Source of the DNA: JBHIER01 sp046760705 [NCBI: bacterium]
GTDB taxonomy: Bacteria; JBHIER01; G020348925
Length of the DNA: 12,112 nucleotides
Reading direction: 5' to 3'
Assembly (NCBI GenBank): GCA_046760705.1
Contig: JBHIER010000046.1
Coordinates: forward strand, 1-12,112
Both the position numbers and the translations under genes were made by a program. Below are positions 90-12,112 of this stretch, piece after piece. Below the pieces are notes generated by a model. The model was given only the letters and a program-made list of their open reading frames with translations, was not told where the DNA came from and ran no database searches. Numbering within the stretch: the first letter of the stretch is position 1; each line of letters begins with the position of its first letter.

Positions 90-125
90 GGGGAGCCTGT
101 CTGCCTGCTTAAGTCACTTGTTCTC

Positions 126-180
126 AAAAAATGGATTGACAAAGGGGGCGAAAAACGTTATTATTGGGGGAGTCACCCAG
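126..180 (+). repeat. Promoter repeat, copy 1
   Basis: First of three related intergenic modules (others at 8608 and 11961). It has six A's (126-131), TTGACA at 136-141, a 17-base spacer, TATTAT at 159-164, then TGGG (165-168) and CCCA (176-179) as arms of an inverted repeat over the expected start site. The other copies share the A-run, the -35, the spacer length, the TATTAT-TGG core and the inverted repeat, but the arm sequence differs. Outside this module I see little similarity to the other copies. Confidence 0.7.
136..164 (+). promoter_or_regulatory. Sigma-70 promoter P1 (in repeat copy 1)
   Basis: TTGACA (136-141, perfect -35), 17-base spacer, TATTAT (159-164, one mismatch to consensus). 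An A-rich stretch just upstream could act as an UP element. The start would fall near 171, inside the TGGG/CCCA inverted repeat. It points into the satD remnant and the methionine/transsulfuration operon. Confidence 0.7.
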
Positions 181-197
181 GTCGAGGGTACTCTGGG
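165..197 (+). promoter_or_regulatory. Overlapping inverted repeats at the start of the P1 transcript
   Basis: TGGG 165-168 can pair with CCCA 176-179. CCCAG 176-180 can instead pair with CTGGG 193-197. Both use the same central CCCA, so the two pairings exclude each other. The first surrounds the predicted start site and fits an operator better than an RNA stem. The second would form at the very 5' end of the transcript. Stems are short, so function is only suggested. Confidence 0.3.
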
Positions 198-218
198 ACA
201 GAGGAATACAAATAAAAA

Positions 219-242
219 AGCTTGTACTTTTAAAGATAAGCT
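219..242 (+). promoter_or_regulatory. Dyad-symmetric operator candidate over P2
   Basis: A 24-base near-palindrome: outer arms AGCTT (219-223) and AAGCT (238-242), inner core CTTT-T-AAAG (227-235), with 3 and 2 unpaired bases between them. It covers the -35 and most of the spacer of the second promoter, where a dimeric repressor could bind. No regulator gene can be linked to it from this window. Confidence 0.4.
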
Positions 243-250
243 GATATACT
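222..250 (+). promoter_or_regulatory. Sigma-70 promoter P2 upstream of the satD remnant and met operon
   Basis: TTGTAC (222-227), a 17-base spacer, TATACT (245-250). The start would fall near 256-258, on or beside the ATG at 257, so a transcript from P2 would be essentially leaderless for the satD-like frame. I see no Shine-Dalgarno before 257, which agrees. P2 would also drive the operon from 706 unless there is an internal promoter. Confidence 0.6.
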
Positions 251-256
251 TGTATT

Positions 257-693
257 ATGAAGATGAAATCAAGAATCTTTACGATAATTGTTGGTGATTT
301 GGTCCGCTCTGGGGACATCTCTGCTCGTCAACAGCTCTCTCACAAGATTCGTTTGGCAATCGATCACCTTTCCAGAGAATTCCGGGGCATCAGCTCCAAG
401 GATGCAAGGAGGATGGATGGTTCTGCATTTCATACAGCATCTAATATGGTCAGCACCGCGGAGTGCAGTTCAACGAAACATTTGGAAGCCAGAAGTCAGC
501 GGCAAAGGAACTTGGTATGACTCAACAGGCAATATCTGACGCACTTCGGCAGGCTCATTGGAAGGAACTGAAACGACCGGAGAATATGATTTGTCAAAGG
601 CGAACGAGGACGAAGATGAATGGGTTCGGAGAGTTAATAATTGCGTTCTTGCATTTCTGCCACTTGCAGAGGTCTGTTCCTGCGATTTGCTAA
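257..693 (+). pseudogene. Broken SatD-family gene
   Basis: The N-terminal frame (ATG 257, or 263) gives about 46 residues with the SatD pattern: short hydrophobic strand, Gly-Asp-hydrophobic-x-x-Ser-x-x-Ile/Leu, then a helix of Arg-x-x-Leu repeats. It then jumps to Met-Asp-Gly-Ser-Ala-Phe-His, which resembles a motif from the later part of SatD proteins, so the middle is missing. The frame then shifts near 445. From there to stop 691-693 a second frame carries a C-terminal helix-turn-helix (Ser-Ala-Ala-Lys-Glu-Leu-Gly-Met-Thr-Gln-Gln-Ala-Ile-Ser), the usual SatD ending. Intact members are around 200 residues (from memory). At least one internal deletion plus a frameshift make it non-functional as written. 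It lies between P2 and the met operon, so its remains act as leader DNA. Family recognition is from motifs only. Confidence 0.6.
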
Positions 694-705
694 GGAGATA
701 CTCAC

Positions 706-1701
706 ATGAGGTATCATCACAATGTACTTGAAACAATCGGTAATACCCCATTGGTAAAGTTGAACGCTATTCCCAAAAGTGCCAAACCGACCATCTGGGC
801 GAAATTGGAGTACTTCAATCCCACTGGAAGTGTCAAAGATCGAATGGCACTATATATGATTGAGGATGCAGAAATAAGGGGGCTCTTAAAGCCTGGAGGA
901 ACAATAGTAGAAAATTCCTCAGGGAATACGGGGGCTGCCCTTGCAATGATTGCATCAGTAAAAGGATACAAATGCATCATCACGATGCCCGACAAGATGA
1001 GTGATGAAAAGAAGAATTTGATGACAGCATTGGGCGCGGAGGTGATCGTAACCCCCACAGATGTTCCCGCAGATTCTCCTGAGAGCTACTACAGTGTGGC
1101 CAAACGAATAGCAGCAGAAACCCCCGATTCATACTATCCAGACCAATACAATAATCCAAAGAATATTGAGGCACATTATTACACCACTGGACCTGAAATC
1201 TGGCAACAGACAGGGGGTAAGATCGATGTTCTCGTGGCTGGAATTGGGACAGGAGGCACTCTCAGCGGGGCTGGAAGATATCTCAAAGAAAAAAATCCTG
1301 AGATAAAAGTGATTGCTGTTGATCCCGAGGGGTCGGTCTTCTATGATTACTTTAAAACCGGAAAGTTACCCGAACCACACGTTTACAAAGTGGAGGGGAT
1401 TGGAGAGGACTACCTGGTGAAGGCAGTCGATTTCAAGTTAATAGACGACATCATTCAAGTAAATGACAGGGAATCCTTTTTGATGGCCAGAAGACTGGCA
1501 AAAGAGGAGGGAATCTTTGCCGGGGGATCGAGCGGCAGTGCCGTCTGGGCTGCGGTCAAGATTGCTGAAAAGATTGAAGAGATGAAAAACATCGTCGTTA
1601 TCATTCCAGATTCAGGCAGCAGATACCTGAGCAAGATGTATAATGACGAATGGATGAAAATCAATGGGTTCTTCGAAGAGGGTGAACAACATGAAATTTG
1701 A
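706..1701 (+). CDS. cbs: Cystathionine beta-synthase-type PLP enzyme (catalytic core only)
   Basis: A fold-type II PLP enzyme of 331 residues. Predicted reaction: serine (or O-acetylserine) plus homocysteine to cystathionine in the cytoplasm, the first step of reverse transsulfuration. Visible motifs: the Schiff-base lysine in Asn-Pro-Thr-Gly-Ser-Val-Lys-Asp-Arg (K44), the substrate loop Ser-Ser-Gly-Asn-Thr-Gly (71-76), the PLP phosphate loop Gly-Ile-Gly-Thr-Gly-Gly-Thr (179-185), and Pro-Asp-Ser near the end. A Thr-Pro-Thr then Asp-Ser-Pro-Glu-Ser stretch, Val-Asp-Pro-Glu-Gly-Ser and Glu-Gly-Ile-Gly resemble CBS more than plain CysK. It lacks the N-terminal heme segment and C-terminal Bateman domains of animal CBS, so no SAM control through that domain. 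AAGGAG at 692-697 supports ATG 706. It overlaps the next gene by 11 bases. Cysteine synthase activity (CysK or MccA-like) is the main alternative. Confidence 0.85.
   Translation: MRYHHNVLETIGNTPLVKLNAIPKSAKPTIWAKLEYFNPTGSVKDRMALYMIEDAEIRGLLKPGGTIVENSSGNTGAALAMIASVKGYKCIITMPDKMSDEKKNLMTALGAEVIVTPTDVPADSPESYYSVAKRIAAETPDSYYPDQYNNPKNIEAHYYTTGPEIWQQTGGKIDVLVAGIGTGGTLSGAGRYLKEKNPEIKVIAVDPEGSVFYDYFKTGKLPEPHVYKVEGIGEDYLVKAVDFKLIDDIIQVNDRESFLMARRLAKEEGIFAGGSSGSAVWAAVKIAEKIEEMKNIVVIIPDSGSRYLSKMYNDEWMKINGFFEEGEQHEI
1678..1684 (+). promoter_or_regulatory. Ribosome binding site choosing the 1691 start
   Basis: GAGGGTG lies 6 bases before ATG 1691, inside the end of the upstream gene. The in-frame ATG at 1664 has no comparable site and would add nine residues absent from the family, so 1691 is preferred. 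Confidence 0.6.
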
Positions 1702-2851
1702 GACAAGATCAATCCATATAGGGGAAGAGCCAAATTTTGCGCCAGGCGGTTCCGGAGATGTGGTTATCCCAATTCACCTTTCATCCACATTTGCCAGAAA
1801 AGAGGTAGAGAAGCCCACATCCGGCTATGAATACTCCAGGACAGGCAATCCAACAAGAAATGCCCTCGAGAGGCGATTGGCAACACTTGAGAATGCTGAA
1901 TTTGGACTCGCCTTCGCTTCCGGAATGGCTGCTGAAACAACCATCGCCTTATCCCTACTTCAATCAGGTGATCATATAATAGCATTTGATGATTTATATG
2001 GTGGCACAAGGAGATTGTTCGATACGGTCTTTAGCAAGAACTTTAAAATTGCCGTAAGTTACGTCGATGCAAGGGATGCGGAGAAGGTGAAAAGAGCTAT
2101 ACGGGCAGATACAAAACTCATCTGGTTAGAAACCCCAACAAACCCGCTGATGAAACTTTGTGATCTTCCAGTAATTTCAGCAATTGCGAAAAAGCAAAAT
2201 ATCTTAGTTGTGGTTGACAACACCTTTATGACCCCGTATTTTCAAAAGCCACTCCTTTTAGGGGCGGATATTGCCCTTCATAGCACAACCAAATACCTGA
2301 ATGGCCATAGCGATTCAGTAGGCGGAGCAATAATGCTTTCTGACGAAACGATTTATAACAAGCTCAAATTCAATCAAAATGCCACTGGGGCCATACTTTC
2401 TCCTTTTGACAGTTTCTTGGTTTTGAGAGGAACAAAGACGTTGGCCATACGAATGCAGGAACATGAGAAAAATACTATTAAACTTGCGGAGTTTTTAGAA
2501 TCTCATCCCAAAGTAAAAAAGGTCAACTATCCTGGATTAAAGAGCCACCCTCAACATGAGTTGGCTAAAAAACAGATGTCGGGATTCGGAGGAATGTTGT
2601 CATTAGAAATAGACGGAACCATGAAACAGGTAAAACTCTTTTTAGAAAGCCTTGAAATCTTTGCTTTGGCCGAGAGTTTAGGCGGTGTTGAATCACTCAT
2701 TGAACATCCTGCTCTGATGACGCACTCTTCCATACCCAAGACTGAAAGGGAAAAGATAGGGGTTACGGATTCATTAATCAGAATGTCAGTGGGAATTGAA
2801 AATATTGATGATCTAATAGAAGATATTAACAGAGCATTTCATAGAATCTGA
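1691..2851 (+). CDS. Cystathionine gamma-lyase (Cys/Met metabolism PLP enzyme)
   Basis: A 386-residue fold-type I PLP enzyme. Likely reaction: cystathionine to cysteine, 2-oxobutyrate and ammonia, completing reverse transsulfuration after the preceding CBS-type enzyme. Visible motifs: Tyr-Ser-Arg-Thr-Gly-Asn-Pro-Thr-Arg near residue 50, the Ser-Gly-Met-Ala PLP contact, Glu-Thr-Pro-Thr-Asn-Pro, the pyridine-nitrogen Asp in Val-Asp-Asn-Thr-Phe (D176), and the Schiff-base lysine in Ser-Thr-Thr-Lys-Tyr (K201). The C-terminal Ala-Glu-Ser-Leu-Gly-Gly-Val-Glu-Ser-Leu and Met-Thr-His-Ser-Ser motifs are intact. Length is normal. Over long stretches it recalls eukaryotic CSE. Cystathionine gamma-synthase, beta-lyase and methionine gamma-lyase share this fold, so the exact reaction rests on pairing with the CBS-type neighbour. 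It ends one base before the next gene. Confidence 0.88.
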   Translation: MKFETRSIHIGEEPNFAPGGSGDVVIPIHLSSTFARKEVEKPTSGYEYSRTGNPTRNALERRLATLENAEFGLAFASGMAAETTIALSLLQSGDHIIAFDDLYGGTRRLFDTVFSKNFKIAVSYVDARDAEKVKRAIRADTKLIWLETPTNPLMKLCDLPVISAIAKKQNILVVVDNTFMTPYFQKPLLLGADIALHSTTKYLNGHSDSVGGAIMLSDETIYNKLKFNQNATGAILSPFDSFLVLRGTKTLAIRMQEHEKNTIKLAEFLESHPKVKKVNYPGLKSHPQHELAKKQMSGFGGMLSLEIDGTMKQVKLFLESLEIFALAESLGGVESLIEHPALMTHSSIPKTEREKIGVTDSLIRMSVGIENIDDLIEDINRAFHRI

Positions 2852-2852
2852 A

Positions 2853-3476
2853 ATGGTTTTTAATAAACTTATCAAACTTGATGAAATTCACTTTGAAATA
2901 GACAGAAGGGCCGTTTACTCACTTCTCGGTTACAGAAAAGGAAAAGCATCTCTCTCTCAGAAAATGATAAGGATTCTTGACAACGCTTTCAGTGAAATTC
3001 TTGATCTCGTTGATCCGAAAGGAGCTTATCTTATACGGAAAATAAGAGACAAGGGTGGGGAAGTCTTCCTTTTAGATTCCGAAATAGTCCTGAGAGGAGA
3101 ATCTATGGTGAACCTCCTTCGTGATTCTTTTGCTGTTATCTTCATGGCAGTTACAGTGGGTTGCCGCTTGGAGAGAAGAATTTCCCAGGAGATGGAAAAA
3201 GGAAACCACGAAACGGCCCTTGTTTTTGATGCGATAGGTTCAGAGACAGTAGAAGCTGTTGCAAACTCTCTCAACAATCGCCTGCTGACGGAGGCAAGAC
3301 AGTTCAAGCATTCTTTGACCATGAGGTTCAGCCCCGGTTATGGCGACCTTCCACTAACATTCCAGAGGGAGATGTACGAGGAGCTATCCCTCGGTGAGCT
3401 GGGAATTGAGATCAATGACAGAAACATGCTCTCTCCTCAAAAGACCATAACTGCCCTCATTGGAATAGAAAAGTGA
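2853..3476 (+). CDS. Free-standing methionine synthase (MetH) reactivation domain
   Basis: A 207-residue protein matching the vitamin B12-dependent methionine synthase activation domain. That domain binds S-adenosylmethionine and reductively methylates oxidised cob(II)alamin in MetH. The diagnostic Arg-x-x-x-Gly-Tyr motif appears as Arg-Phe-Ser-Pro-Gly-Tyr-Gly-Asp-Leu-Pro-Leu (R158, G162, Y163). In E. coli it is the C-terminal domain of the 1,227-residue MetH. Here it is a separate gene just before a MetH that lacks it, an arrangement known from Thermotoga and other anaerobes. A few intact Cys and hydrophobic strands are present but no signal peptide. It starts one base after the previous stop with no clear Shine-Dalgarno, suggesting translational coupling. 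Its GTGA end overlaps the metH start by four bases, fitting 1:1 production with its partner. Confidence 0.85.
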   Translation: MVFNKLIKLDEIHFEIDRRAVYSLLGYRKGKASLSQKMIRILDNAFSEILDLVDPKGAYLIRKIRDKGGEVFLLDSEIVLRGESMVNLLRDSFAVIFMAVTVGCRLERRISQEMEKGNHETALVFDAIGSETVEAVANSLNNRLLTEARQFKHSLTMRFSPGYGDLPLTFQREMYEELSLGELGIEINDRNMLSPQKTITALIGIEK

Positions 3477-5881
3477 GCATTCTTGAAAAATTGAAGGAAA
3501 AAGTTTTAATTCTTGACGGAGCGATGGGAACTGAGATCATACGGAAGATCGGAAAAGATTTTGTTTTTCCAGAACTCCTCAACCTTGAAGCAAAGGACAT
3601 CATCATCGACATACACAGAGATTACATTGACGCCGGTGTAGACATCATAACCACAAATACTTTTGGAGCAAACAGAATCAAGCTCGATGAGTACGGGGTA
3701 GGAAGTAGGGTCGAGGAGTTGAACATTGCGGCTGTGATGATAGCCAAGGAGGCAAGAGCAGGAAGGGAGGTTTTCATCGCTGGTTCTATCGGGCCTCTGG
3801 GCAAGTTTATCAGACCCCTTGGAGACCTGGGGGAAGAGGAAGTCTATCTTGTCTTTTCAGAGCAGGCAAGGGCTCTCGAGAAGGCAGGCGCGGACCTTCT
3901 CCTCATTGAGACACAGATAGACATTCTTGAGGCCAAAATTGGTCTCAGAGCTTCGAAAGAGAACACCTCCCTTCCCGTTGCCATCTCCATCTCCTACCCC
4001 CTTGAGGAGGGAAGGACTGTAACAGGTTCCGACCCAGAAATCGCCTCAATCGCCTTCTCCTCCACTGACGCCGACATCTTCGGAGTAAACTGCGGAGGCC
4101 ATCCTGAGGAGTTTGAGAGTTACCTTGAGAAAATTCTCCATCACAGCGACAAGCCGGTTATCGCCCACGCCAATGCTGGAGTTCCTGAAAAGAGGGGGGC
4201 TGAGGTTTCTTATCCACTTGACCCAGGGGAATATGCAGAATATGCCTGGAAGTTCTATCGGCTTGGAGCCAGCATAATAGGTGGATGTTGTGGGACAACT
4301 CCCGAACACATAAGGTTCGTTTCTGAGAAATTGAAGGGGAGAAAGCCTGTAGAAAGGAAAAAGGAATACTTTTTTAGAGCCTCCAGCAGGAACTCCCTTC
4401 TTACGATAGGAGATTCACTTCCTTTCAGGCTCATAGGAGAGAACATAAATCCATTTGGTAGAGAGAAACTGAGCCAGGAGCTCAAGGAGGGGAGATTGGA
4501 ACTGGTGAGGGAGTCTGCACGAAAGCAGGAGGGGGCAGGGGCAGATGCCCTCGACGTAAATCTTGGAGGGAAGGGAGAGGCCGATCCTCAGTTTTTTGCC
4601 TCCGCTGTAAGGGAGCTGCAGACAACCGTTCAAATCCCTCTCTTTCTGGACAATAATAACCCACACTCCCTTGAGTTGGCTCTCAAATCCTATGGAGGGA
4701 AAGCGGTCATAAACTCAGTCAACGGAGACAGAAGTTCCTACGAGACCCTTTTCCCCCTCGCCAAGAAATACGGTGCTTCTGTTGTTCTTCTTGCGACGGA
4801 TCAGAATGGAATTGCCGATGAAGCTGAGGAGAGAGTCAGAATAATAGAAAAACTGTACAGGATAGCCATTGATTTCGGGCTAACAGAGCAAGACCTTCTC
4901 GCCGATCCCGTTGTTCTCACCATCTCCACCTCTCAGAAATGTTCTCTGGAGACACTTAAAGCCGTAGAAATGATAAAGTCTTTGGGTCTCCACACAATAA
5001 TGGGGCTTTCCAATCTTTCCTTCGGTCTTCCCCACAGAAAACTTCTCAATGCTTCATTTCTCACCATGGCCATGGAAAGGGGACTCGACTCAGCCATTGC
5101 AAATCCCCTCGATGAAAATCTCATGGCTGCCATAAAAGCCTGCGATGCAATCCTTGGCAGAGACAGAGGGATGCGTCTTTTCGTAGAGAGATTTGGAGGG
5201 ACTTTCGCAGTTACAATTGAAGAGAAGCAGGAAATAAGATCAGAGAGTCCTGAAGAAGAGCTTTTTCATGCTGTTGTCGAAGGAGAGAAAACCAAAGCAG
5301 AAGAGACAACAAGACTGCTCCTTGAAAAAGGAGAAAATGGTTTTGAGATCCTTGAGGGGATCCTCTCTCCCGCTCTAAGACAGGTCGGGGAATATTATGA
5401 AAAAAAGAAATATTTTCTCCCCCAACTGATTCTTTCGGCAGAGGCGATGGAAAGGGCATCAAAAGTGCTCGAGGCTTCTCTCGAGCTGAGAGGAAAGGCA
5501 AAGGAGAGGATCAAAATTGTCATTGCCACAGTCAGAGGAGACCTTCACGACATTGGAAAAAATATCGTGGCCCTCATCCTCAGAAACTATGGATATGATG
5601 TCGTAGATTTGGGAAAGAATGTGGAGGGAAAAGAGATAGTTGAGACTGCGGTCAGGGAGGGAGCGAATATCATCGGCCTGTCTGCTCTCATGACCACGAC
5701 TATGGAGGAGATGAGGAAGGTGGTGGAACTGAGAAATTCGATGGCTCCCCATATTCGGGTCGTTGTAGGGGGAGCTGCTGTTTCTCCATCCTTTGCCAGG
5801 CAGATTGGGGCTGATGGTTACTGTAAGGACGCCATGGGCACGGTAAGAAAAATAGAGAACCTTTCGGGAGAGAGCAAATGA
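3473..5881 (+). CDS. metH: Cobalamin-dependent methionine synthase lacking the activation domain
   Basis: 802 residues. It moves the methyl group of 5-methyltetrahydrofolate through methylcobalamin to homocysteine, giving methionine. Domain order: homocysteine/zinc domain about 1-290 with the three zinc ligands (C207 and the C272-C273 pair in Gly-Gly-Cys-Cys-Gly-Thr); pterin-binding domain about 315-575 starting at Ile-Gly-Glu-Asn-Ile-Asn (321-326) with Asp-Val-Asn; cobalamin cap helices about 590-675; cobalamin Rossmann domain about 680-800 with Asp-x-His-x-x-Gly (D690, H692, G695), H692 being the lower cobalt ligand. The chain stops after the B12 domain, and the missing SAM-binding reactivation domain is encoded just upstream. 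GTG start with four-base overlap; the next gene overlaps by four bases as well. Arg is mostly AGA/AGG. Confidence 0.95.
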   Translation: MSILEKLKEKVLILDGAMGTEIIRKIGKDFVFPELLNLEAKDIIIDIHRDYIDAGVDIITTNTFGANRIKLDEYGVGSRVEELNIAAVMIAKEARAGREVFIAGSIGPLGKFIRPLGDLGEEEVYLVFSEQARALEKAGADLLLIETQIDILEAKIGLRASKENTSLPVAISISYPLEEGRTVTGSDPEIASIAFSSTDADIFGVNCGGHPEEFESYLEKILHHSDKPVIAHANAGVPEKRGAEVSYPLDPGEYAEYAWKFYRLGASIIGGCCGTTPEHIRFVSEKLKGRKPVERKKEYFFRASSRNSLLTIGDSLPFRLIGENINPFGREKLSQELKEGRLELVRESARKQEGAGADALDVNLGGKGEADPQFFASAVRELQTTVQIPLFLDNNNPHSLELALKSYGGKAVINSVNGDRSSYETLFPLAKKYGASVVLLATDQNGIADEAEERVRIIEKLYRIAIDFGLTEQDLLADPVVLTISTSQKCSLETLKAVEMIKSLGLHTIMGLSNLSFGLPHRKLLNASFLTMAMERGLDSAIANPLDENLMAAIKACDAILGRDRGMRLFVERFGGTFAVTIEEKQEIRSESPEEELFHAVVEGEKTKAEETTRLLLEKGENGFEILEGILSPALRQVGEYYEKKKYFLPQLILSAEAMERASKVLEASLELRGKAKERIKIVIATVRGDLHDIGKNIVALILRNYGYDVVDLGKNVEGKEIVETAVREGANIIGLSALMTTTMEEMRKVVELRNSMAPHIRVVVGGAAVSPSFARQIGADGYCKDAMGTVRKIENLSGESK

Positions 5882-7686
5882 ACTTCATGGACTTTTTTGC
5901 CAACGAACAGTTCGTCCTTTTTGATGGAGCTCTGGGCACTCAATTATATACCAAAGGGATTGCTAAAGGACATTGCTACGATGAGTTGAACATCTCTATG
6001 CCTGAAGTCATTCTGGGAATTCACGAAGAATATATCGCAGCAGGGGCCAGGGTCATAACGACCAATACGTTTGGAGCCAACAGATTTATTCTTGAGGAGT
6101 ATTACGACCTGGGAGGAAAAACAAAAGAGATGAACTACTACGGAGCAAGGCTTGCAAAACGCGTGGCAAAAGAGAGAGCCTTTGTTGCTGGCTCGGTCGG
6201 ACCCATAACCAGGCCCCTTGACAAGGAGAAGAAGCTTGAGGAGCGGGAAATATCCACCATAATGAAGGAGCAGATCGAGGCACTCCTTGAGGGGGGAGTT
6301 GACTTAATACTCTTTGAAACGTTTGCGTGCATAGACGAACTTCTCACAGGGATAAAAACAGCGAAGGAGGCAGAGAAGGAGATATTTGTTATCGCTCAGG
6401 CCTCTTTTCCAAACAATGGACTGACCCTCTTCGGAAAAAATCCGTACGAAGTAGCCCTGAGGCTCGATGCTGCGGGAGTCGCTGTTCTCGGTTCGAACTG
6501 CGGCACCGGTCCCCAGAGCGTTTACGAGGCAGTGAGGAAGATGGGGTCGGTGACAGAGACAGAACTTTCAGCCATGCCAAATGCTGGCCTGGCCCAGTTT
6601 ACTCAGGGCAAGTTCTACTATCCTTACAATCCAGAATACTTTGCTGAATACGGGAGGAAATTTTTGGAGTCAGGGGTGAAGGTCATAGGGGGATGCTGCG
6701 GCACAAGCCCTGAGTACATCAAGCTCCTCAGCCAGAACCTTGAGGGAATGAAGCCGAGAAGGAGGAAAACGAAAAGAATCGAGACTATAGAACAGAGGCA
6801 GGTAAGAAAAAAGGAAAAATTAACCTCCAGGCTGAAGAGGCTTCTTGACCAAGGCAAGGTGATCGCTCTGGAAGTCGACCCGCCCAAGGACGGTGATTTT
6901 GACAGATTCCTCAAGGAAGTTGAGCCTTATTCTGGTTCCATTGATGTCATAAACGTTTCTGATAGTCCCATGGCCAGACCGAGAATGTCTCCCATCTCTG
7001 CTGGCAAGCTTCTCAAAGATGCTCTCGGAAAGGAGATCATCGTTCATTATACCTGCAGGGACAGGAACATTCTCGGAATTCAATCAGACCTCCTCGGTGC
7101 TTCAGCATTGGGGCTTGAAAACTTTCTCGCCCTCGGAGGAGATCCCCCGTCCATAGGAGATTATCCCTTTGCCACAGGAGTGTACGACCTCACCGCAGAG
7201 GGGCTTGTAGAAATGATGTCAGCGCTCAACCACGGCGTTGACCTCCTTGGCAATCCCGTTGGAAAGCAGACCCATTTCTTCATAGGCATTGGGATGGGAA
7301 CAGGTTTTGAAGATGAGAGCGAAATTGGAAGAATAGAGAAGAAGATAGAAAAGGGGGCCCACTATATAATGACTCAGCCTGTATTCGATCTGGAGGGCAG
7401 CAGAAAGGTACTGGAGGCTTTGAAGGAACTCGGAGTTCCTCTATTGCTCAGCATACTGCCTCTCGTCTCCTCCAAAAATGCCGAATACATACACTACGAA
7501 GTCCCTGGGATTACGGTGCCTGAAAAATATTTGAAAAGAATGGAAGGGAAAAGGGGAAAAGAGGGGGAAAAAGAGGGTGTTTCCATTGCCCGGGAGCTTC
7601 TCAAGGAACTCGGCCCAGTTGCTGATGGGATTCTTCTCATTCCGCCTTTCAACAAATTTCACCTCATAGAGGAAATTCTCTCATAG
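5878..7686 (+). CDS. Bifunctional homocysteine S-methyltransferase / methylenetetrahydrofolate reductase
   Basis: 602 residues, a fusion of the YitJ type. The N-terminal homocysteine domain (about 1-285) starts with Leu-Phe-Asp-Gly-Ala-Leu-Gly-Thr-Gln-Leu and keeps zinc ligands C208 and C273-C274. A charged Arg/Lys-rich linker (about 287-312) leads to a MTHFR barrel (about 313-602) with the catalytic glutamate in Leu-Glu-Val-Asp-Pro-Pro-Lys (E332), Thr-Cys-Arg-Asp-Arg-Asn, Leu-Gly-Gly-Asp-Pro-Pro, and Thr-Gln-Pro-Val-Phe-Asp (from T499). The MTHFR half reduces 5,10-methylene-THF to 5-methyl-THF, the donor for the MetH just upstream. The methyl donor of the N-terminal half is uncertain (S-methylmethionine, SAM, or 5-methyl-THF handed across). 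The ATGA overlap with metH shows coupling, and a purine-rich site precedes ATG 5878. ATG 5887 is a possible alternative start. Confidence 0.93.
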   Translation: MNFMDFFANEQFVLFDGALGTQLYTKGIAKGHCYDELNISMPEVILGIHEEYIAAGARVITTNTFGANRFILEEYYDLGGKTKEMNYYGARLAKRVAKERAFVAGSVGPITRPLDKEKKLEEREISTIMKEQIEALLEGGVDLILFETFACIDELLTGIKTAKEAEKEIFVIAQASFPNNGLTLFGKNPYEVALRLDAAGVAVLGSNCGTGPQSVYEAVRKMGSVTETELSAMPNAGLAQFTQGKFYYPYNPEYFAEYGRKFLESGVKVIGGCCGTSPEYIKLLSQNLEGMKPRRRKTKRIETIEQRQVRKKEKLTSRLKRLLDQGKVIALEVDPPKDGDFDRFLKEVEPYSGSIDVINVSDSPMARPRMSPISAGKLLKDALGKEIIVHYTCRDRNILGIQSDLLGASALGLENFLALGGDPPSIGDYPFATGVYDLTAEGLVEMMSALNHGVDLLGNPVGKQTHFFIGIGMGTGFEDESEIGRIEKKIEKGAHYIMTQPVFDLEGSRKVLEALKELGVPLLLSILPLVSSKNAEYIHYEVPGITVPEKYLKRMEGKRGKEGEKEGVSIARELLKELGPVADGILLIPPFNKFHLIEEILS

Positions 7687-7721
7687 GGCGGCGAAACTGC
7701 GATTAGTTTGTCATTGCCACT

Positions 7722-8414
7722 GTGAACAAAGGTATCCGCAGAATTTTTTCCGAAGTTCCTGGGACTTACGAGTTGGTCAATCATGTTTTGACATGTGGTC
7801 TCGACACCCTCTGGCGAAGGAAAGCAGCCCGATTTGCGGCCGCCGATGGTGGCACGAGGTGGTTGGATATCTGCAGCGGGACAGGAGAAATGGCCGTTTA
7901 CCTGTGTCGGCTGGCAGAAGATGATACAACCATTGTCGCTGCAGATTTCTCCCTTCCGATGCTCCGCAACCTTACTGATAAATCTGAAGCGACTCGAATC
8001 GTCTTCACCATTGCGGAGGCCAGTACTTTGCCTTTCCACAACAATACCTTTGACCTGGTAACTATTTCTTTTGCAACGCGCAATATCAATGTCAGTCGCG
8101 AGGCATTGATACAGTGTCTTCGTGAGTTCTATCGGATTCTCAAGCCAGGGGGAAGATTCGTGAGCCTGGAGACGAGCCAACCGCCGTTGAGGCTGTTCAG
8201 ATGGTTATTTCACGTCTACGTCCGACTTTTTGTCAAGCCGATCGGGTTCATCATTTCTGGATCGAGGGCTGCCTATGCCTATCTTTCACATACGATTCCT
8301 CGTTTCTACAGCGCTGGCGAATTTGGGGAGATCGTTCGCCGAGCAGGTTTTGTCAAGCCCACCTTTAAGCGCCTTTTCTTTGGGGTGGCTGCCATCCACA
8401 AAGCAGTCAAGTGA
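7722..8414 (+). CDS. ubiE: UbiE/MenG-type class I SAM methyltransferase
   Basis: 230 residues, close to the normal UbiE/MenG length. Family function: C-methylation of demethylmenaquinol or the ubiquinol precursor, at the inner face of the membrane. Visible: the UbiE-like N-terminus with Tyr-Glu-Leu-Val-Asn-His and Leu-Trp-Arg-Arg; SAM motif I Trp-Leu-Asp-Ile-Cys-Ser-Gly-Thr-Gly-Glu (D49 to E56); Ala-Ala-Asp-Phe-Ser as the ribose-binding acidic strand; Leu-Pro-Phe then Phe-Asp-Leu-Val and Ala-Thr-Arg-Asn-Ile; and Arg-Ile-Leu-Lys-Pro-Gly-Gly-Arg. GTG start at 7722; an in-frame TAG at 7704 limits extension, and no good Shine-Dalgarno is visible. It begins 35 bases after the met operon and could be read through, but uses more CGN arginine codons. 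No other quinone gene is nearby, so substrate is inferred from family only. Confidence 0.8.
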   Translation: MNKGIRRIFSEVPGTYELVNHVLTCGLDTLWRRKAARFAAADGGTRWLDICSGTGEMAVYLCRLAEDDTTIVAADFSLPMLRNLTDKSEATRIVFTIAEASTLPFHNNTFDLVTISFATRNINVSREALIQCLREFYRILKPGGRFVSLETSQPPLRLFRWLFHVYVRLFVKPIGFIISGSRAAYAYLSHTIPRFYSAGEFGEIVRRAGFVKPTFKRLFFGVAAIHKAVK

Positions 8415-8558
8415 CGCGGGCCTAGCGAAACCTGTCGGTTGTGGCACCCAATGAGTGGGAACTAAGTATGGCTGCTCGCCTTTCTGTCTGCCTGGCGTGA
8501 CCGCCGCGGCAGCGACGTCGGGCCAACGATTTAAGGCATTGTAAGGACTCCGATAGAC

Positions 8559-8579
8559 GGACAACCATAAAGGCTGTCC
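8559..8579. repeat. Imperfect hairpin, REP-like
   Basis: GGACAACC (8559-8566) and GGCTGTCC (8572-8579) flank a five-base ATAAA loop. Seven of eight positions pair, the eighth being A-C on this strand and a G-T wobble on the other. The form (a GGG-ACAGCC arm, short AT loop, complementary arm) recalls dispersed REP-like palindromes of some environmental bacteria, from memory. No second copy is seen in this window. Confidence 0.35.
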
Positions 8580-8607
8580 CTACAGTCGGATTCACTCAAA
8601 AGTCGCG

Positions 8608-8662
8608 AAAAAATGTATTGACTAAGAGGGTTGAAAATGTTATTATTGGGATAAATCATCCA
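8608..8662 (+). repeat. Promoter repeat, copy 2
   Basis: Six A's (8608-8613), TTGACT (8618-8623), a 17-base spacer, TATTAT (8641-8646), then GGAT (8649-8652) and ATCC (8658-8661) as inverted arms in a 13-base element. Copies 1 and 3 keep the same layout with different arm bases. Confidence 0.75.
8618..8646 (+). promoter_or_regulatory. Sigma-70 promoter of the ATPase gene
   Basis: TTGACT, 17 bases, TATTAT. The start is expected near 8653, within the inverted repeat at 8649-8661. The leader to ATG 8748 would be about 95 bases. There is no other gene between it and the ATPase. Confidence 0.7.
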
Positions 8663-8747
8663 ATAGCAATAGAGGTGATTGACTCTTGAGGGGATAAGAT
8701 GGTGGGGGTGGGCGAGTGATATATGAAGCAGGGAGAGGCAAGTTGCG

Positions 8748-10262
8748 ATGAGAGAGACCGAGCTTGAATATACCTTGTTCGGCTTTCGATTGTCGGAAGA
8801 ATTGGAGGCTTTCTTGTGGGACACCAACCCATGGTGGCAGGATAAACCCATGCGCCTATTGCCACCGTTTCGGCGCTGGCTGTTCGATCTTATCCGGCAG
8901 CATCTCAAAGCAGGACTTGCTCCCGCCACCGTGCTGCGTGGCCCTCGTCAGGTCGGCAAGACCACCCTGCAGGAACAGATCATAGACCACTTGCTTCATC
9001 AAGAGGGTGTTAGTCCAAAGCGCATCTTTCGCGTGCAGTTTGACGAAATCCCCTCCCTCAAAGGTTTGAGGGACCCCATCCTCAGCCTCTGCCGCTGGTT
9101 TGAGAACCGTATTCTCGGGGGGTCTTTCAACGAGTGGGCACGCAAGGGTGAGCCTGTATGCCTTTTTTTTGACGAAGTGCAAAATCTGATGGATTGGGCT
9201 CCACAAATCAAAGCCCTTGTGGATCATCACTCAGTCCGAGTGTTGTTGACGGGGAGTTCCGCACTGCGCATCGAGCACGGTCGGGACAGCTTAGCTGGGC
9301 GCATTTCCAGTTTGGAACTGAACACGCTGCTTCTACGTGAGATTGCCTCGTTGCACGGATGGGGGGAACTCCCTCCTCTGCTCCCCTTCAATGGGCTGAA
9401 GATGCTCAAAGAGCGCGAGTTCTGGGAAGCCCTGCGCGAGCATGGTGTCCGCCATCGGGTGGTGCGAGACCAGGCGTTTGAGGCTTTTTCCGAACGCGGC
9501 GGTTATCCGATAGCCCAGGTCCGAACCGACCGTCTATGGGAAGAAATAGCTGACCAACTCAACGAGACAGTGATCCGCCGTGTAATTCAACATGACCTGA
9601 GGCTGGGAGAACGCGGTAGAAAGCGAGATGAGAGCCTGCTTGCGGAAGTCTTTCGACTTTCGTGCCGCTATGCAGGTCAGGCCCCTGGGCAGCCCATCTT
9701 CATCAATGAACTCCGTTCGGCCTTGTCTGCCAACGTTGGCTGGCAGCGAGTTCTGGCTTACCTACGATTTCTCAATGACACATTACTGATTCGTCTCATC
9801 CCACCGTTGGAGCTTCGGCTTAAACGGCCGAAAGGACGACCCAAGATCTGTCTGTGCGACCACTCGCTGCGCGCGAGTTGGCTTCAAGAGATCATTCCTA
9901 TCACCTCGGATGATCTGCAACGCTCACCGCACCTCAGCGACCTATCAGGGCACATAGCAGAGAGCATCGCGGGTTATTTTCTGAGCAACATTCCCGGGCT
10001 GGACCTCGCCTGGTTCCCAGAACGGGGCGCGGACCCGGAGGTAGACTTTGTGATCACGGTGGGTCAGTGCCACATTCCGCTGGAAGTGAATTACCGGGTG
10101 CACATCGATGAGCATCGCGACACCTTGGGGCTACGGGCGTTCATTGAGAAGACGGTCTATAACGCCCCCTTTGGTGTACTTATAACTCTCTCAGATGATG
10201 TGCCAATTGCGGACCCCAGAATCGTGGCCCTACCGCTTTCGTCGCTTTTGTTAATGAGGTGA
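8748..10262 (+). CDS. AAA-family ATPase with DUF4143-type C-terminal domain
   Basis: 504 residues. Walker A Gly-Pro-Arg-Gln-Val-Gly-Lys-Thr-Thr (65-73), Walker B ending Phe-Phe-Asp-Glu-Val-Gln-Asn (D142, E143), and a sensor-like Leu-Leu-Thr-Gly-Ser-Ser-Ala motif after it. The C-terminal half has the DUF4143 layout: Leu-Arg-Phe-Leu-Asn-Asp-Thr-Leu-Leu-Ile near 355-365, Lys-Ile-Cys-Leu-Cys-Asp, then Glu-Val-Asp-Phe-Val-Ile (431-436) and Pro-Leu-Glu-Val-Asn-Tyr-Arg (444-450). In many relatives the last motif reads Glu-Val-Lys, as in a PD-(D/E)XK nuclease fold; here N448 replaces that lysine. The cellular role of the family is poorly defined. GGGAGAGG (8731-8738) precedes ATG 8748. It stands alone behind its own strong promoter. 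CGN arginine codons dominate, unlike the met operon. Confidence 0.85.
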   Translation: MRETELEYTLFGFRLSEELEAFLWDTNPWWQDKPMRLLPPFRRWLFDLIRQHLKAGLAPATVLRGPRQVGKTTLQEQIIDHLLHQEGVSPKRIFRVQFDEIPSLKGLRDPILSLCRWFENRILGGSFNEWARKGEPVCLFFDEVQNLMDWAPQIKALVDHHSVRVLLTGSSALRIEHGRDSLAGRISSLELNTLLLREIASLHGWGELPPLLPFNGLKMLKEREFWEALREHGVRHRVVRDQAFEAFSERGGYPIAQVRTDRLWEEIADQLNETVIRRVIQHDLRLGERGRKRDESLLAEVFRLSCRYAGQAPGQPIFINELRSALSANVGWQRVLAYLRFLNDTLLIRLIPPLELRLKRPKGRPKICLCDHSLRASWLQEIIPITSDDLQRSPHLSDLSGHIAESIAGYFLSNIPGLDLAWFPERGADPEVDFVITVGQCHIPLEVNYRVHIDEHRDTLGLRAFIEKTVYNAPFGVLITLSDDVPIADPRIVALPLSSLLLMR

Positions 10263-10489
10263 TTTTGAAACGGAACTTGAAAGAGAATCTGAAGCAAATA
10301 GCAATTGGATAGGTATGGAGAATGCAACTTCATCTAACATCACTTGTGACTCCATACTTGCAAGACCGTTCCAATAATCTGACCAGATGCCGCAGGGACC
10401 GCCCTCCATCAAAACCCACTTCGTCCCTTGATACGAGGAGACGGAGCTGATCTCTGACCACCCATCCTTGAAAGAGACTGACTCCGAAT
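10263..10489. other. Unassigned 227-base stretch before the ferredoxin frame
   Basis: No gene recognised. Plus-strand frames are broken by stops (for example TGA 10429-10431 and 10469-10471). There is no Cys-x-x-Cys-encoding stretch that could be the missing N-terminus of the ferredoxin. A minus-strand frame is open across it (stop complement at 10251) and contains Trp-Val-Leu-Met-Glu-Gly-Gly-Pro, but I do not recognise it and the frame runs on as a shadow of the ferredoxin. It may be foreign or decayed sequence. Confidence 0.4.
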
Positions 10490-10882
10490 TTGGCCCAGAT
10501 GCCTGAAGGGTCTCATCGTTGGCGGGCCAGGCGGCAGGGTGAGGCAGGACTGGCCAATACGTGCATAGGCGTGAGGTCCGTTGGGGGCATGGAACGGGGA
10601 TTTGTCGTGGTGGTCTGTAGGGCCTGCGAGAACCCCCCATGTGGAAAGGTATGCCCGACAGGTGCCCTGAAAAAGAGGGATGCGGGTGGGGTGAAGCTCG
10701 ATGAGGGCAAATGTTTCGGATGTGGCTACTGTCGGCAAGCCTGTCCCATAGGATGTGCTTTCTGGAGTGATGAGGTGAACAAACCGATGATTTGTATCCA
10801 CTGCGGTTTCTGCGCTCGATTCTGTCCTCACCGGGTATTGGGCCTGGAAAAAGGCAGGGAGGCCGACCATGTGTACCGATGA
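10490..10882 (+). CDS. Polyferredoxin partner of AOR, N-terminally truncated (probable remnant)
   Basis: Up to 131 codons from TTG 10490; more conservative starts are GTG 10571 or ATG 10589. Three [4Fe-4S] motifs are visible (numbered from 10490): Cys43-x2-Cys46-x4-Cys51-x3-Cys55-Pro, Cys75-x2-Cys78-x2-Cys81-x3-Cys85-Pro, and Cys102-x2-Cys105-x2-Cys108-x3-Cys112-Pro. The pattern matches ferredoxins encoded directly before aldehyde:ferredoxin oxidoreductases, which accept electrons from the AOR tungstopterin enzyme. Those usually begin with another Cys-x-Gly-Cys-x-x-Cys motif; here the residues before about 33 look unrelated and no such motif exists upstream in any frame. It overlaps the AOR start by 14 bases. 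With its partner destroyed it is likely non-functional or in decay. Confidence 0.6.
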   Translation: MAQMPEGSHRWRARRQGEAGLANTCIGVRSVGGMERGFVVVVCRACENPPCGKVCPTGALKKRDAGGVKLDEGKCFGCGYCRQACPIGCAFWSDEVNKPMICIHCGFCARFCPHRVLGLEKGREADHVYR

Positions 10883-11962
10883 TCCTCTGGCAAACGTCCT
10901 CTACATCGACCTTTCGAAAAAACGGTTCTGGGTTGAGAAGAGGCAGGACCTTTTCACAAAATATATAGGTGGCGCAGGCGTGGCCACGCAGCTCCTCCAC
11001 GAGGAATGTCCCGAAGGGGCAGATCCTTTCGGCCCAGACAACCCGATTGTCCTTACTGTCGGCCCTCTGACGGCGCTCTTCCCCCTTGCCTCAAAGACCG
11101 TGGCTATGTTCAAGTCGCCGCATGCTGGCAACTTAGGAGAAAATCATGCCGGGGGGGCGAAGCCCCATTGCTCTCCGCATGGCTGGGTACGGCGCTGCGG
11201 TCATAAAGGGGGCCAGCGATACCCCCATCTACCTCGCTATTCACGGCGATCGGGTCTACTTCCGGGATGCTTCCTCCCTGTGGGGGATGAGGAGCAGCTT
11301 TACGGTAGGCCGCATCATCAGGGAGGCCGAGCCTGCCGCGGGCTTGAGACTGAAGAAATACCACGATCTTGGAACGGCTGAGAATGTGCTGCCCTTAAAC
11401 GCACTGAAGGGGCTTCCCACCAGAAACCTCCAAGGGACAGAATTCGAGGGAGCCTCTGAACTCTCCGGCGAAACATTTGCCGAAAAGTATCTGATCCGAT
11501 GCCAGAGGTTTTCTGCAGTTGATGGATCAGGTGGAAATCTGGGGTCTGGATGCGATGAGCACCGGAGTGATCCTGGCCTGGGCGACGGAGGCTCAGCAGC
11601 GAGGTATCATCTCTGAGAAGGAGACACTGGGCCTCAGGCTCCGCTGGGGAGATTACACGGCCTACACTGCCGTTCTCCGACCAATCATCGAGCAAACGAA
11701 TGACTTCTTTAAGGCCTTGGCCAGGGGAGTCGAGCGCGCTGCCTCCATCTACGGAGGCGCTGATTTCGCCCTGGCTTTCGGCGGACACGAAATGGCCGGA
11801 TATCACCCTGGCCCAGGTGCGTATCTCACCTATCTGACCGGGGCACGACACAGCCATCTGGACAGTGCCGGGTACAGCGTTGACCAGAAAATCCTCGTCG
11901 AAAAAGAGATGAGCCCGGAGGGGCTGGCCGATGCCCTGCTGAGTGAGGAGCGCTTTTCGTAA
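10869..11962 (+). pseudogene. Aldehyde:ferredoxin oxidoreductase (AOR family), multiply disrupted
   Basis: GGGAGG precedes ATG 10869. The N-terminal AOR fold is clear: Leu-Tyr-Ile-Asp-Leu-Ser, Tyr-Ile-Gly-Gly-Ala-Gly, Val-Gly-Pro-Leu-Thr, Gly-Asn-Leu-Gly-Glu-x-His-Ala-Gly-Gly. (1) A seven-G run at 11151-11157 shifts the frame; with six G's it continues as Gly-Gly-Arg and then Ala-Gly-Tyr-Gly. (2) Near 11340 Glu-Pro-Ala-Ala-Gly jumps in frame to Lys-Lys-Tyr-His-Asp-Leu-Gly-Thr-Ala, losing roughly 80-90 residues including the Gly-Ser-Lys-x-Leu-Lys cofactor region. (3) Near 11500 the frame jumps again, from Glu-Lys-Tyr-Leu-Ile-Arg to Leu-Met-Asp-Gln-Val-Glu, deleting the Cys-x-x-Cys-Pro-x-Gly-Cys cluster site. 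(4) After Ala-Arg-His-Ser-His-Leu-Asp-Ser-Ala-Gly-Tyr it stops at TAA 11960-11962, short of about 100 residues normally present. Loss sizes are estimates from family memory. It cannot make a working tungsten enzyme. Confidence 0.85.
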
Positions 11963-12014
11963 AAATGGATTGACAAAGAGGTTTAAAAATAGTATTATTG
12001 GGATAGGTTATCCA
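11961..12014 (+). repeat. Promoter repeat, copy 3
   Basis: Five A's (11961-11965), TTGACA (11970-11975), 17-base spacer, TATTAT (11993-11998), then a perfect GGATA (12001-12005) / TATCC (12009-12013) inverted repeat with a three-base centre. Its first A's are part of the TAA that ends the truncated AOR frame, so the AOR sequence is lost exactly where this module begins. Confidence 0.75.
11970..11998 (+). promoter_or_regulatory. Sigma-70 promoter in repeat copy 3
   Basis: TTGACA (perfect -35), 17 bases, TATTAT. The start is expected near 12005 in the middle of the GGATA/TATCC palindrome. It reads rightward out of the window toward a possible start codon at 12058. Confidence 0.7.
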
Positions 12015-12057
12015 CTGTAAGGGATGTTGGATATTGTGATTGGCTGGAGAAAGAGGA

Positions 12058-12112
12058 GTGAGCGATTCTGTAAAAGTATGGAAAATATTGCAATCTGAGC
12101 ATAACCAAGCTG
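12058..12112 (+). CDS. Possible start of a gene running off the right edge
   Basis: An open frame from GTG 12058 to the window edge (18 codons), with GGAG (around 12045-12048) upstream and promoter copy 3 about 53 bases before it. The residues look like an amphipathic helix (Val-Lys-Val-Trp-Lys-Ile-Leu-Gln then Glu-His-Asn-Gln). This faintly recalls the N-terminal helix of HypB-type GTPases, but it is far too short to assign. Confidence 0.25.
   Translation, partial: MSDSVKVWKILQSEHNQA

What the first reader, a model, noticed from the sequence alone, without database searches (positions are those of the whole stretch)
126..12014. Three-copy promoter module with a covarying palindrome over the start site
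Copies at 126-180, 8608-8662 and 11961-12014 share an A-run, TTGACA/T, exactly 17 bases, an identical TATTAT followed by TGG, and then an inverted repeat. The arms differ but stay complementary: TGGG/CCCA, GGAT/ATCC, GGATA/TATCC. Promoters drift freely outside the two boxes, so retained pairing with changing bases suggests a selected dyad, such as an operator or a 5' RNA hairpin, or a common mobile origin. The three copies stand before unrelated genes (satD remnant plus met operon, AAA ATPase, unknown gene), which suggests either a regulon or a dispersed promoter cassette.
Basis: partly seen in the sequence, partly recalled or inferred. Interest (0 to 1): 0.7.

Follow-up and report, generated by a model that had tools for sequence, protein, structure and literature searches.

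The report
One strong promoter reused three times
Three genes or gene groups on this stretch of DNA from an unidentified bacterium begin with nearly the same very strong 'on' signal, which is real and unusually alike, but the extra palindrome that made it look special is only weakly supported.

Summary
The repeated module is real. Three ~57-nt copies (124-180, 8606-8662, 11958-12014) share more than the two promoter boxes. Outside them 23 of 45 positions are invariant in all three, against at most 13 in 20,000 random window triplets and at most 17 among triplets of box-matched sites in parts of two proxy genomes. Conserved parts map onto known RNA-polymerase contacts: an A-tract matching the proximal UP subsite, TTGACW, a 17-bp spacer, TATTAT, a TGGG discriminator. 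Similarity stops near -46 and +9. I read it as a strong full-length sigma-70 promoter template used at three transcription units.

The 'covarying palindrome' is weak: the quoted arms are not the same positions in all copies. In one common register copy 1 keeps three pairs, two changed on both sides (P = 0.025 by shuffling; 0.16 for at least 3 of 5). The RNA hairpins fold no better than shuffles, and most of the left arm probably lies upstream of +1. An operator is not excluded.

No genome is held for the window, and no further copy of the whole module turned up in 937 genomes of four phyla searched by pattern. Lineage-wide promoter class, dispersed repeat or regulon stays open.

The parts
124..180 (+). 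Module copy 1: promoter upstream of a short decayed frame (257-520, weak SatD N-terminus) and the Met/Cys operon
   Evidence: 57.3 bits with profile R1, which was built from the three copies
125..133 (+). Copy 1 UP-like A-tract (CAAAAAATG, 8 of 9 to AAAAAARNR at -46..-38)
   Evidence: consensus from a passage of PMC2801614
136..141 (+). Copy 1 -35 box TTGACA
159..164 (+). Copy 1 -10 box TATTAT
165..179 (+). Copy 1 discriminator TGGG and dyad TGGG/CCCA (165-168/176-179); in the register of copies 2/3 it is GGG/CCC (168-170/176-178). Inferred +1 A at 171
   Evidence: +1 is inference from spacing
8606..8662 (+). Module copy 2: promoter upstream of the AAA_14/DUF4143 ATPase (8748-10262)
   Evidence: 61.3 bits
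8607..8615 (+). Copy 2 UP-like A-tract (GAAAAAATG, 8 of 9)
8618..8623 (+). Copy 2 -35 box TTGACT
8641..8646 (+). Copy 2 -10 box TATTAT (TG one base upstream, extended -10)
8647..8661 (+). Copy 2 discriminator TGGG and dyad GGAT/ATCC (8649-8652/8658-8661). Inferred +1 A at 8653
   Evidence: +1 inferred
11958..12014 (+). Module copy 3: overlaps the stop codon (11960-11962) of a truncated aldehyde ferredoxin oxidoreductase remnant; its downstream gene lies beyond the window
   Evidence: 59.7 bits
11959..11967 (+). Copy 3 UP-like A-tract (GTAAAAATG, 7 of 9)
11970..11975 (+). Copy 3 -35 box TTGACA
11993..11998 (+). Copy 3 -10 box TATTAT
11999..12013 (+). Copy 3 discriminator TGGG and dyad GGATA/TATCC (12001-12005/12009-12013). 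Inferred +1 A at 12005
   Evidence: +1 inferred
706..8414 (+). Likely operon served by copy 1 (operon inferred from spacing and strand): PLP enzyme (cystathionine beta-synthase/cysteine synthase type), Cys/Met PLP enzyme, a protein without family match (by position perhaps MetH activation, inference), MetH-type protein, homocysteine methyltransferase-MTHFR fusion, UbiE-type methyltransferase
8748..10262 (+). AAA_14/DUF4143 ATPase served by copy 2

Best explanation
The module is one full-length, near-consensus vegetative (sigma-70 type) promoter template used at three transcription units. From left to right: an A-tract at -45 to -40 for the alpha-CTD (proximal UP subsite); the -35 box; a 17-bp spacer with A's at -19 to -16; TATTAT as -10; a G-rich discriminator TGGG; and a purine start (A, 7 bases after -10). 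Such a set should give strong, largely constitutive recruitment and a long-lived open complex. The TGG...CCA symmetry would then come mainly from the fixed G-rich discriminator meeting pyrimidines in the first transcribed bases. Most likely the organism builds its strong promoters to this template genome-wide. Shown: the sequence conservation and its limits. Inferred: polymerase contacts, start site, strength, and genome-wide use.
For: Copies 1 and 2 stand in front of a transcription unit in the right orientation (inferred +1 to first ATG about 86 and 95 nt), and copy 3 is in the same orientation with its gene outside the window. They are three of only four sites in the window with a -35 of at least 5/6, boxes at 10 or more of 12 and a 17-bp spacer; the fourth, at 2214, lies inside the 1664-2851 gene. 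UP subsite match 8, 8 and 7 of 9, against 1.6% of 125 box-matched control sites with 8 or more and 12% with 7 or more. TGGG follows -10 in 3 of 3 copies, against 7 of 125 controls, a control set partly fetched for TATTATTGG and so biased towards it. Conservation covers about -46 to +9 and falls to about chance on both sides, roughly the extent of polymerase contacts. From the A-tract through TGGG the copies align without gaps. The downstream genes have no evident common function.
Against: Ordinary promoter-like sites of one genome do not share this much: 0 of 3,951 same-genome pairs in parts of two proxy genomes reach 26 of 45 non-box matches, whereas the window's pairs have 26, 27 and 36. The invariant AAG.GG at -29 to -24 and the CCA at about +8 have no known polymerase contact that I can name. 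The proxies are far from the window (GC 0.30 and 0.33, measured on the first 3 kb of each contig, against 0.49; MetH 52% and 59%), so a lineage-wide template is not shown; the consensus of their own promoters lacks AAG.GG and TGGG.
Confidence: 0.5

Rival explanations
1. Dispersed promoter repeat: a discrete ~55-bp promoter cassette was copied to new places (promoter propagation, 'mobile promoters', or a remnant of a larger repeat) and has since diverged by 18-33%.
For: In copies 2/3 identity runs evenly through upstream, spacer and downstream parts (10/12, 13/17, 13/16) and ends abruptly at both edges. No control pair of box-matched sites in the proxy genomes comes close. Copy 3 overlaps the stop codon of a truncated AOR remnant and copy 1 stands before a decayed frame, so rearrangements happened nearby.
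Against: No inverted repeat of 8 or more bases flanks any copy (the only reported pairs are one inside copy 1's spacer and -10 box, 151-162, and one downstream of it, 205-256). The borders coincide with the polymerase footprint. The part of AOR missing upstream of copy 3 is not recognisable in the 98 bases after it (read by eye). No copy in viral contigs; blastn with copy 2 in phage records and with copy 3 in plasmid records found nothing.
Confidence: 0.25
2. Regulon: a dimeric repressor or activator binds the dyad centred near +3 (and perhaps the spacer), so the three units are co-controlled.
For: In one register (pairs 3-15 to 7-11) copies 1, 2 and 3 have 3, 4 and 5 contiguous Watson-Crick pairs. 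Two pairs of copy 1 are changed on both sides. P = 0.025 for just those three pairs under shuffling. A control pair with 27/45 shared non-box bases, in a Lachnospiraceae genome, is concentrated in one block of about 20 nt around -35 and the early spacer, in loci fetched for relatives of the window's Cys/Met enzyme; I read it as a shared operator, which would show that operators can produce such sharing. A weak helix-turn-helix match (HTH_1, E 0.00079, under the cut-off) lies in the decayed frame 463-693.
Against: P = 0.16 for at least 3 of 5 pairs in register; only three copies, two of them close relatives of each other; stems of 4 or more pairs are common in the window (17%). Shared bases are spread over the whole promoter rather than focused on a dyad. 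Functions are unrelated.
Confidence: 0.2
3. A protective or regulatory 5' RNA hairpin at the very start of the transcripts.
For: Arms can pair in all three (minimum free energy -5.5, -2.8 and -3.6 kcal/mol).
Against: No better than shuffled sequence (z 0.23, -1.43 and 0.31). With +1 about 7 bases after -10 most of the left arm is not transcribed (inference).
Confidence: 0.03
4. Chance coincidence of three promoters.
For: Three copies only. With looser boxes (4 of 6 each) 5 of 55,298 same-genome pairs in other loci reach 26 of 45 (two of them involve one viral-contig site read on the opposite strand) and one reaches 36; a loose site in the window itself (2993) shares 22 of 45 with copy 1.
Against: 0 of 200 shuffles; 23/45 invariant against at most 13 in 20,000 random triplets; 0.004% of 50,000 triplets of box-matched sites, a set that includes orthologous sites; at most 17 in the two proxies.
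Confidence: 0.02

Closest known systems
Full-consensus sigma-70/sigma-A promoters with proximal UP subsite, Z-element-like spacer and G-rich discriminator (review PMC10911233, passages read; UP subsite AAAAAARNR at -46..-38 quoted in PMC2801614, passage read)
   Same: Boxes, 17-bp spacing, A-tract position, G's at -5 to -3, purine start (inferred)
   Different: The spacer start AAG.GG and bases to +9 are also shared between copies, which is not a property of the general consensus; GGG is one base further downstream than the -6 to -4 named in the review
Mobile promoters / promoter propagation in prokaryotes (Matus-Garcia et al. 2012, van Passel et al. 2014; the papers are not held; known here from a passage of PMC8049555, from reference entries in PMC9208149, and from recall)
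   Same: Short similar promoter sequences before unrelated genes of one genome
   Different: No evidence of movement, copy number unknown, identity here 67-82%
Regulon promoters with a shared operator; possible example: the Lachnospiraceae pair L049/L054 (my reading)
   Same: Promoters of one genome that share bases outside the boxes
   Different: There the shared bases form one main block; here they are spread from -46 to +9

Membership tests
Sigma-70 (vegetative) promoter | -35 and -10 hexamers near TTGACA/TATAAT at 16-18 bp | tested here: met
   11, 10 and 11 of 12, spacer 17 in all
Sigma-70 (vegetative) promoter | Stands upstream of a transcription unit in the right orientation | tested here: met
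   Copies 1 and 2; for copy 3 the downstream gene lies outside the window
Sigma-70 (vegetative) promoter | Transcription starts about 7 bases after -10 | not testable with these tools
   No transcript data
UP-element promoter (proximal subsite) | AAAAAARNR at -46 to -38 | tested here: met
   8, 8 and 7 of 9; alpha-CTD binding untested
Mobile promoter / dispersed promoter repeat | Homologous promoters before non-homologous genes in one genome | tested here: met
   Three copies in 12 kb; the genes after copies 1 and 2 are unrelated, the gene after copy 3 is not in the window; common descent of the copies is not proven
Mobile promoter / dispersed promoter repeat | Evidence of movement (empty sites, presence/absence between relatives) | not testable with these tools
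   No relative carrying the module found
MITE | Terminal inverted repeats | tested here: not met
   No inverted pair of 8 or more bases flanks any copy within 60-300, 8500-8760 and 11880-12112
Operator-controlled regulon | Conserved dyad across members | tested here: inconclusive
Operator-controlled regulon | Functionally linked members and a cognate regulator | tested here: inconclusive
   Met/Cys operon, AAA_14/DUF4143, unknown; only a sub-threshold HTH match in a decayed frame
5' RNA hairpin / Rfam element | Stem more stable than shuffled sequence, or a family match | tested here: not met
   z 0.23, -1.43 and 0.31; no Rfam match at gathering threshold

The most novel reading that the evidence does not exclude
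The module is a dispersed ~55-bp promoter cassette of an undescribed bacterial lineage that carries its own start-site operator. It has been copied in front of unrelated genes so that they come under one shared regulator: a regulon spread by promoter copying rather than by evolution of separate operators.
Probability: 0.12. Interest if true: 0.6.

Novelty: new member of a known kind. Interest (0 to 1): 0.28.

Why it matters
If promoters of one genome really share a 55-bp template, promoter reuse could be counted, dated and tested in that lineage, and the usual assumption that only two hexamers are constrained would be visibly wrong there. If it is simply the organism's strong-promoter logo, it is a useful but ordinary annotation aid for an uncultured lineage.

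Tried and rejected
Finding the genome: none is held for the window. The single scan of genome contigs with the MetH protein gave 19 loci, at best 59% (Candidatus Aminicenantes) and 52% (WOR-3), so no close relative.

Pattern TTGACW-N17-TATTATTGG exact: 0 of 5. In the class of G001 13 of 142 genomes (16 matches; reversed-pattern control in 3 genomes), at most 3 per genome, none with the module's spacer by eye. In the phylum of G005 6 of 147 genomes (control in 2). One of these (L040) scored 23.5 bits with a position matrix but lies inside a coding frame, so I set it aside as chance.

Extended pattern with 3 mismatches: 0 of 191 (phylum of G292; reversed control in 2), 0 of 297 (phylum of G001), 0 of 193 (phylum of G294). 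Counting overlapping genomes once, these pattern searches covered 937 genomes: 289 by the exact box pattern, 681 by the extended one, 33 by both. Profile R1 (57-61 bits on the window's own copies): 32 of 142 genomes of the class of G001 have something at E<=0.1 per genome, best 20.7 bits (about 14 genomes expected by chance); I call this noise plus general promoter likeness.

Viral contigs: 0, 4, 0 and 0 stretches for four patterns; of the four, none has the module's spacer. Viral-contig scans with the AAA and AOR proteins found no relative. The PLP-enzyme, AAA and AOR searches of plasmids did not place the organism. One family search (SatD in G005) rang nowhere, not even in its controls, and says nothing.

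Control filter: the first proxy control used a gene filter that the window's own three copies fail (it printed no window rows), so I repeated it without the filter and use that.

Considered and rejected: a TGGAT...ATCCA inverted repeat around the whole promoter (5 bp in copy 3, broken in copies 1 and 2; by eye); MITE; RNA hairpin.
Full report
What is there. The window (12,112 b, GC 0.49) carries three 57-nt copies at 124-180, 8606-8662 and 11958-12014, 67% and 82% identical without gaps to the middle one. Each has an A-run, a -35 box (TTGACA, TTGACT, TTGACA), 17 bases, TATTAT and TGGG. The box pattern with up to 3 mismatches occurs three times, and no shuffle of 200 reaches three. A profile made from all three scores them at 57-61 bits with nothing else in the window at E<=1. 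In leave-one-out matrix scans each left-out copy outranks everything except the two copies used for training.

More than boxes. Outside the two hexamers 23 of 45 positions are identical in all three copies. Random window triplets average 2.9 to 3.1, with maxima of 12 (any position) and 13 (similar GC) in 20,000 draws each. Triplets of 125 box-matched sites from other loci reach 23 in 0.004% of 50,000 draws; that set includes some orthologous sites (its maximum is 34), which makes it conservative. Pairwise the copies share 27, 26 and 36 of 45. Among 273 same-genome pairs of box-matched sites (5 of 6 in each box) only one reaches 26, a Lachnospiraceae pair with 27 and a shared 19-nt block that includes the -35 box; with looser boxes (4 of 6) 5 of 55,298 pairs reach 26 and one 36, and one loose site in the window (2993) shares 22 with copy 1. 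In parts of two proxy genomes, G005 (WOR-3 MAG, 40 contigs, 224 kb, 36 sites) and G001 (Aminicenantes MAG, 20 contigs, 285 kb, 82 sites), 0 of 630 and 0 of 3,321 pairs reach 26, and the best of all triplets have 16 and 17 invariant positions. So the sharing is exceptional, with the reservation that the proxies are distant and AT-rich (GC 0.30 and 0.33 on the first 3 kb of each contig).

What is conserved. Similarity spans about -46 to +9 and drops to about chance on both sides. Set on the usual numbering (-10 box at -12 to -7), the conserved blocks are: an A-tract at -45 to -40 that matches the proximal UP subsite AAAAAARNR (8, 8 and 7 of 9; of 125 controls 1.6% have 8 or more and 12% have 7 or more; consensus as quoted in PMC2801614, passage); the -35 box; AAG.GG at -29 to -24; AAAA at -19 to -16, near the reported Z element (named in PMC10911233 passages; its exact position is recalled); TATTAT; and TGGG at -6 to -3 (GGG at -6 to -4 gave the longest open-complex half-life in a study cited by PMC10911233, passages; that review also reports a model in which GGG is not favourable). 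These are promoter-strength features. AAG.GG and the downstream CCA have no assigned contact that I know of. The consensus of the proxies' own promoters shows A-rich upstream bases and A's after -35, but not AAG.GG or TGGG.

The palindrome. In the register of copies 2/3, copy 1 pairs at 4-14, 5-13 and 6-12, with two pairs changed on both sides, and fails at 3-15 and 7-11. Shuffling copy 1 outside TGGG gives those three pairs in 2.5% of cases and at least three of the five in 16%. If all copies are treated as independent, stems as long as observed occur together in 0.06% of 5,000 shuffles, but copies 2 and 3 share 13 of 16 bases there, so that figure overstates the case. MAFFT puts a one-base gap into copy 1 just after TGGGG and then aligns the right arms as TCACCCA/TCATCCA/TTATCCA, so the right arm may simply be conserved. 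The 26-nt RNAs fold no better than shuffles (z 0.23, -1.43, 0.31). With the start at the A 7 bases after -10 most of the left arm is untranscribed. I conclude that the dyad is possible as DNA but unproven, and unlikely as an RNA hairpin.

Surroundings. Copy 1 precedes an 87-aa frame with a weak SatD N-terminus match (E 0.11; IraP scores E 0.062; both sub-threshold) and then enzymes of Met/Cys metabolism and a UbiE-type methyltransferase. Copy 2 precedes an AAA_14/DUF4143 protein. Copy 3 overlaps the stop codon of a broken aldehyde ferredoxin oxidoreductase (AFOR_N and AFOR_C pieces in several frames, C-terminus missing) and has 98 bases after it. The functions do not suggest one regulon.

Search for other copies. 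The window has no genome held. The nearest MetH relatives found are 59% identical. Exact box pattern: 13 of 142 genomes of the class of G001 (at most 3 per genome) and 6 of 147 of the phylum of G005, none with the module's spacer; the reversed pattern hits 3 and 2 genomes, so the forward pattern is somewhat commoner than its control. Extended pattern with 3 mismatches: 0 of 191, 0 of 297 and 0 of 193. Profile R1 in 142 genomes: nothing above 20.7 bits. Four pattern scans of viral contigs: 0, 4 unrelated, 0, 0. blastn with copy 2 in phages and with copy 3 in plasmids: no match. These misses say little about the source lineage itself, which is not in the collections as far as I could see.

Verdict. 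The most likely account is a strong full-length sigma-70 promoter template (0.5), then a dispersed promoter repeat (0.25), then an operator-bearing regulon (0.2). A genome-wide count would decide.

Noticed in passing
window 10869-11962: Aldehyde ferredoxin oxidoreductase remnant after a ferredoxin-like frame (10490-10882): AFOR_N and AFOR_C matches fall in several frames, an internal stretch and the C-terminus are missing, and the remnant's stop codon lies inside the left edge of module copy 3.
   Followed up: partly
window 205-256: A 19-nt inverted repeat (79% complementary, 14 nt between the arms) directly before the start codon at 257; the copy 1 leader folds better than shuffles (z -2.24, 5 of 200 shuffles as good), unlike the leaders of copies 2 and 3 (z 2.19 and 1.68). 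Could sequester the start region.
   Followed up: no
L049 around 393 and L054 (genome G297, Lachnospiraceae MAG): Two promoter-like sites, in loci fetched for relatives of the window's Cys/Met PLP enzyme, share CCTATTGACATAGTAGGTA; in L054 an AGTAG/CTACT inverted repeat is formed there. Perhaps a sulfur-metabolism operator.
   Followed up: no
L039 4076-4125 and about 4861 (viral contig): Two copies of an element with complementary arms TTGACTAT...ATAGTCAA followed by CAAC; the first also holds the TTGACT-N17-TATTATTGGGATA match. Perhaps a phage operator or terminator-like repeat.
   Followed up: no
window 2853-7686: A 207-aa protein without family match, a MetH-type protein and a homocysteine methyltransferase-MTHFR fusion lie in tandem; the same order is seen in WOR-3 locus L004 (39%, 52%, 56% identity), while the four Aminicenantes loci, as fetched, show only the first two.
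   Followed up: partly
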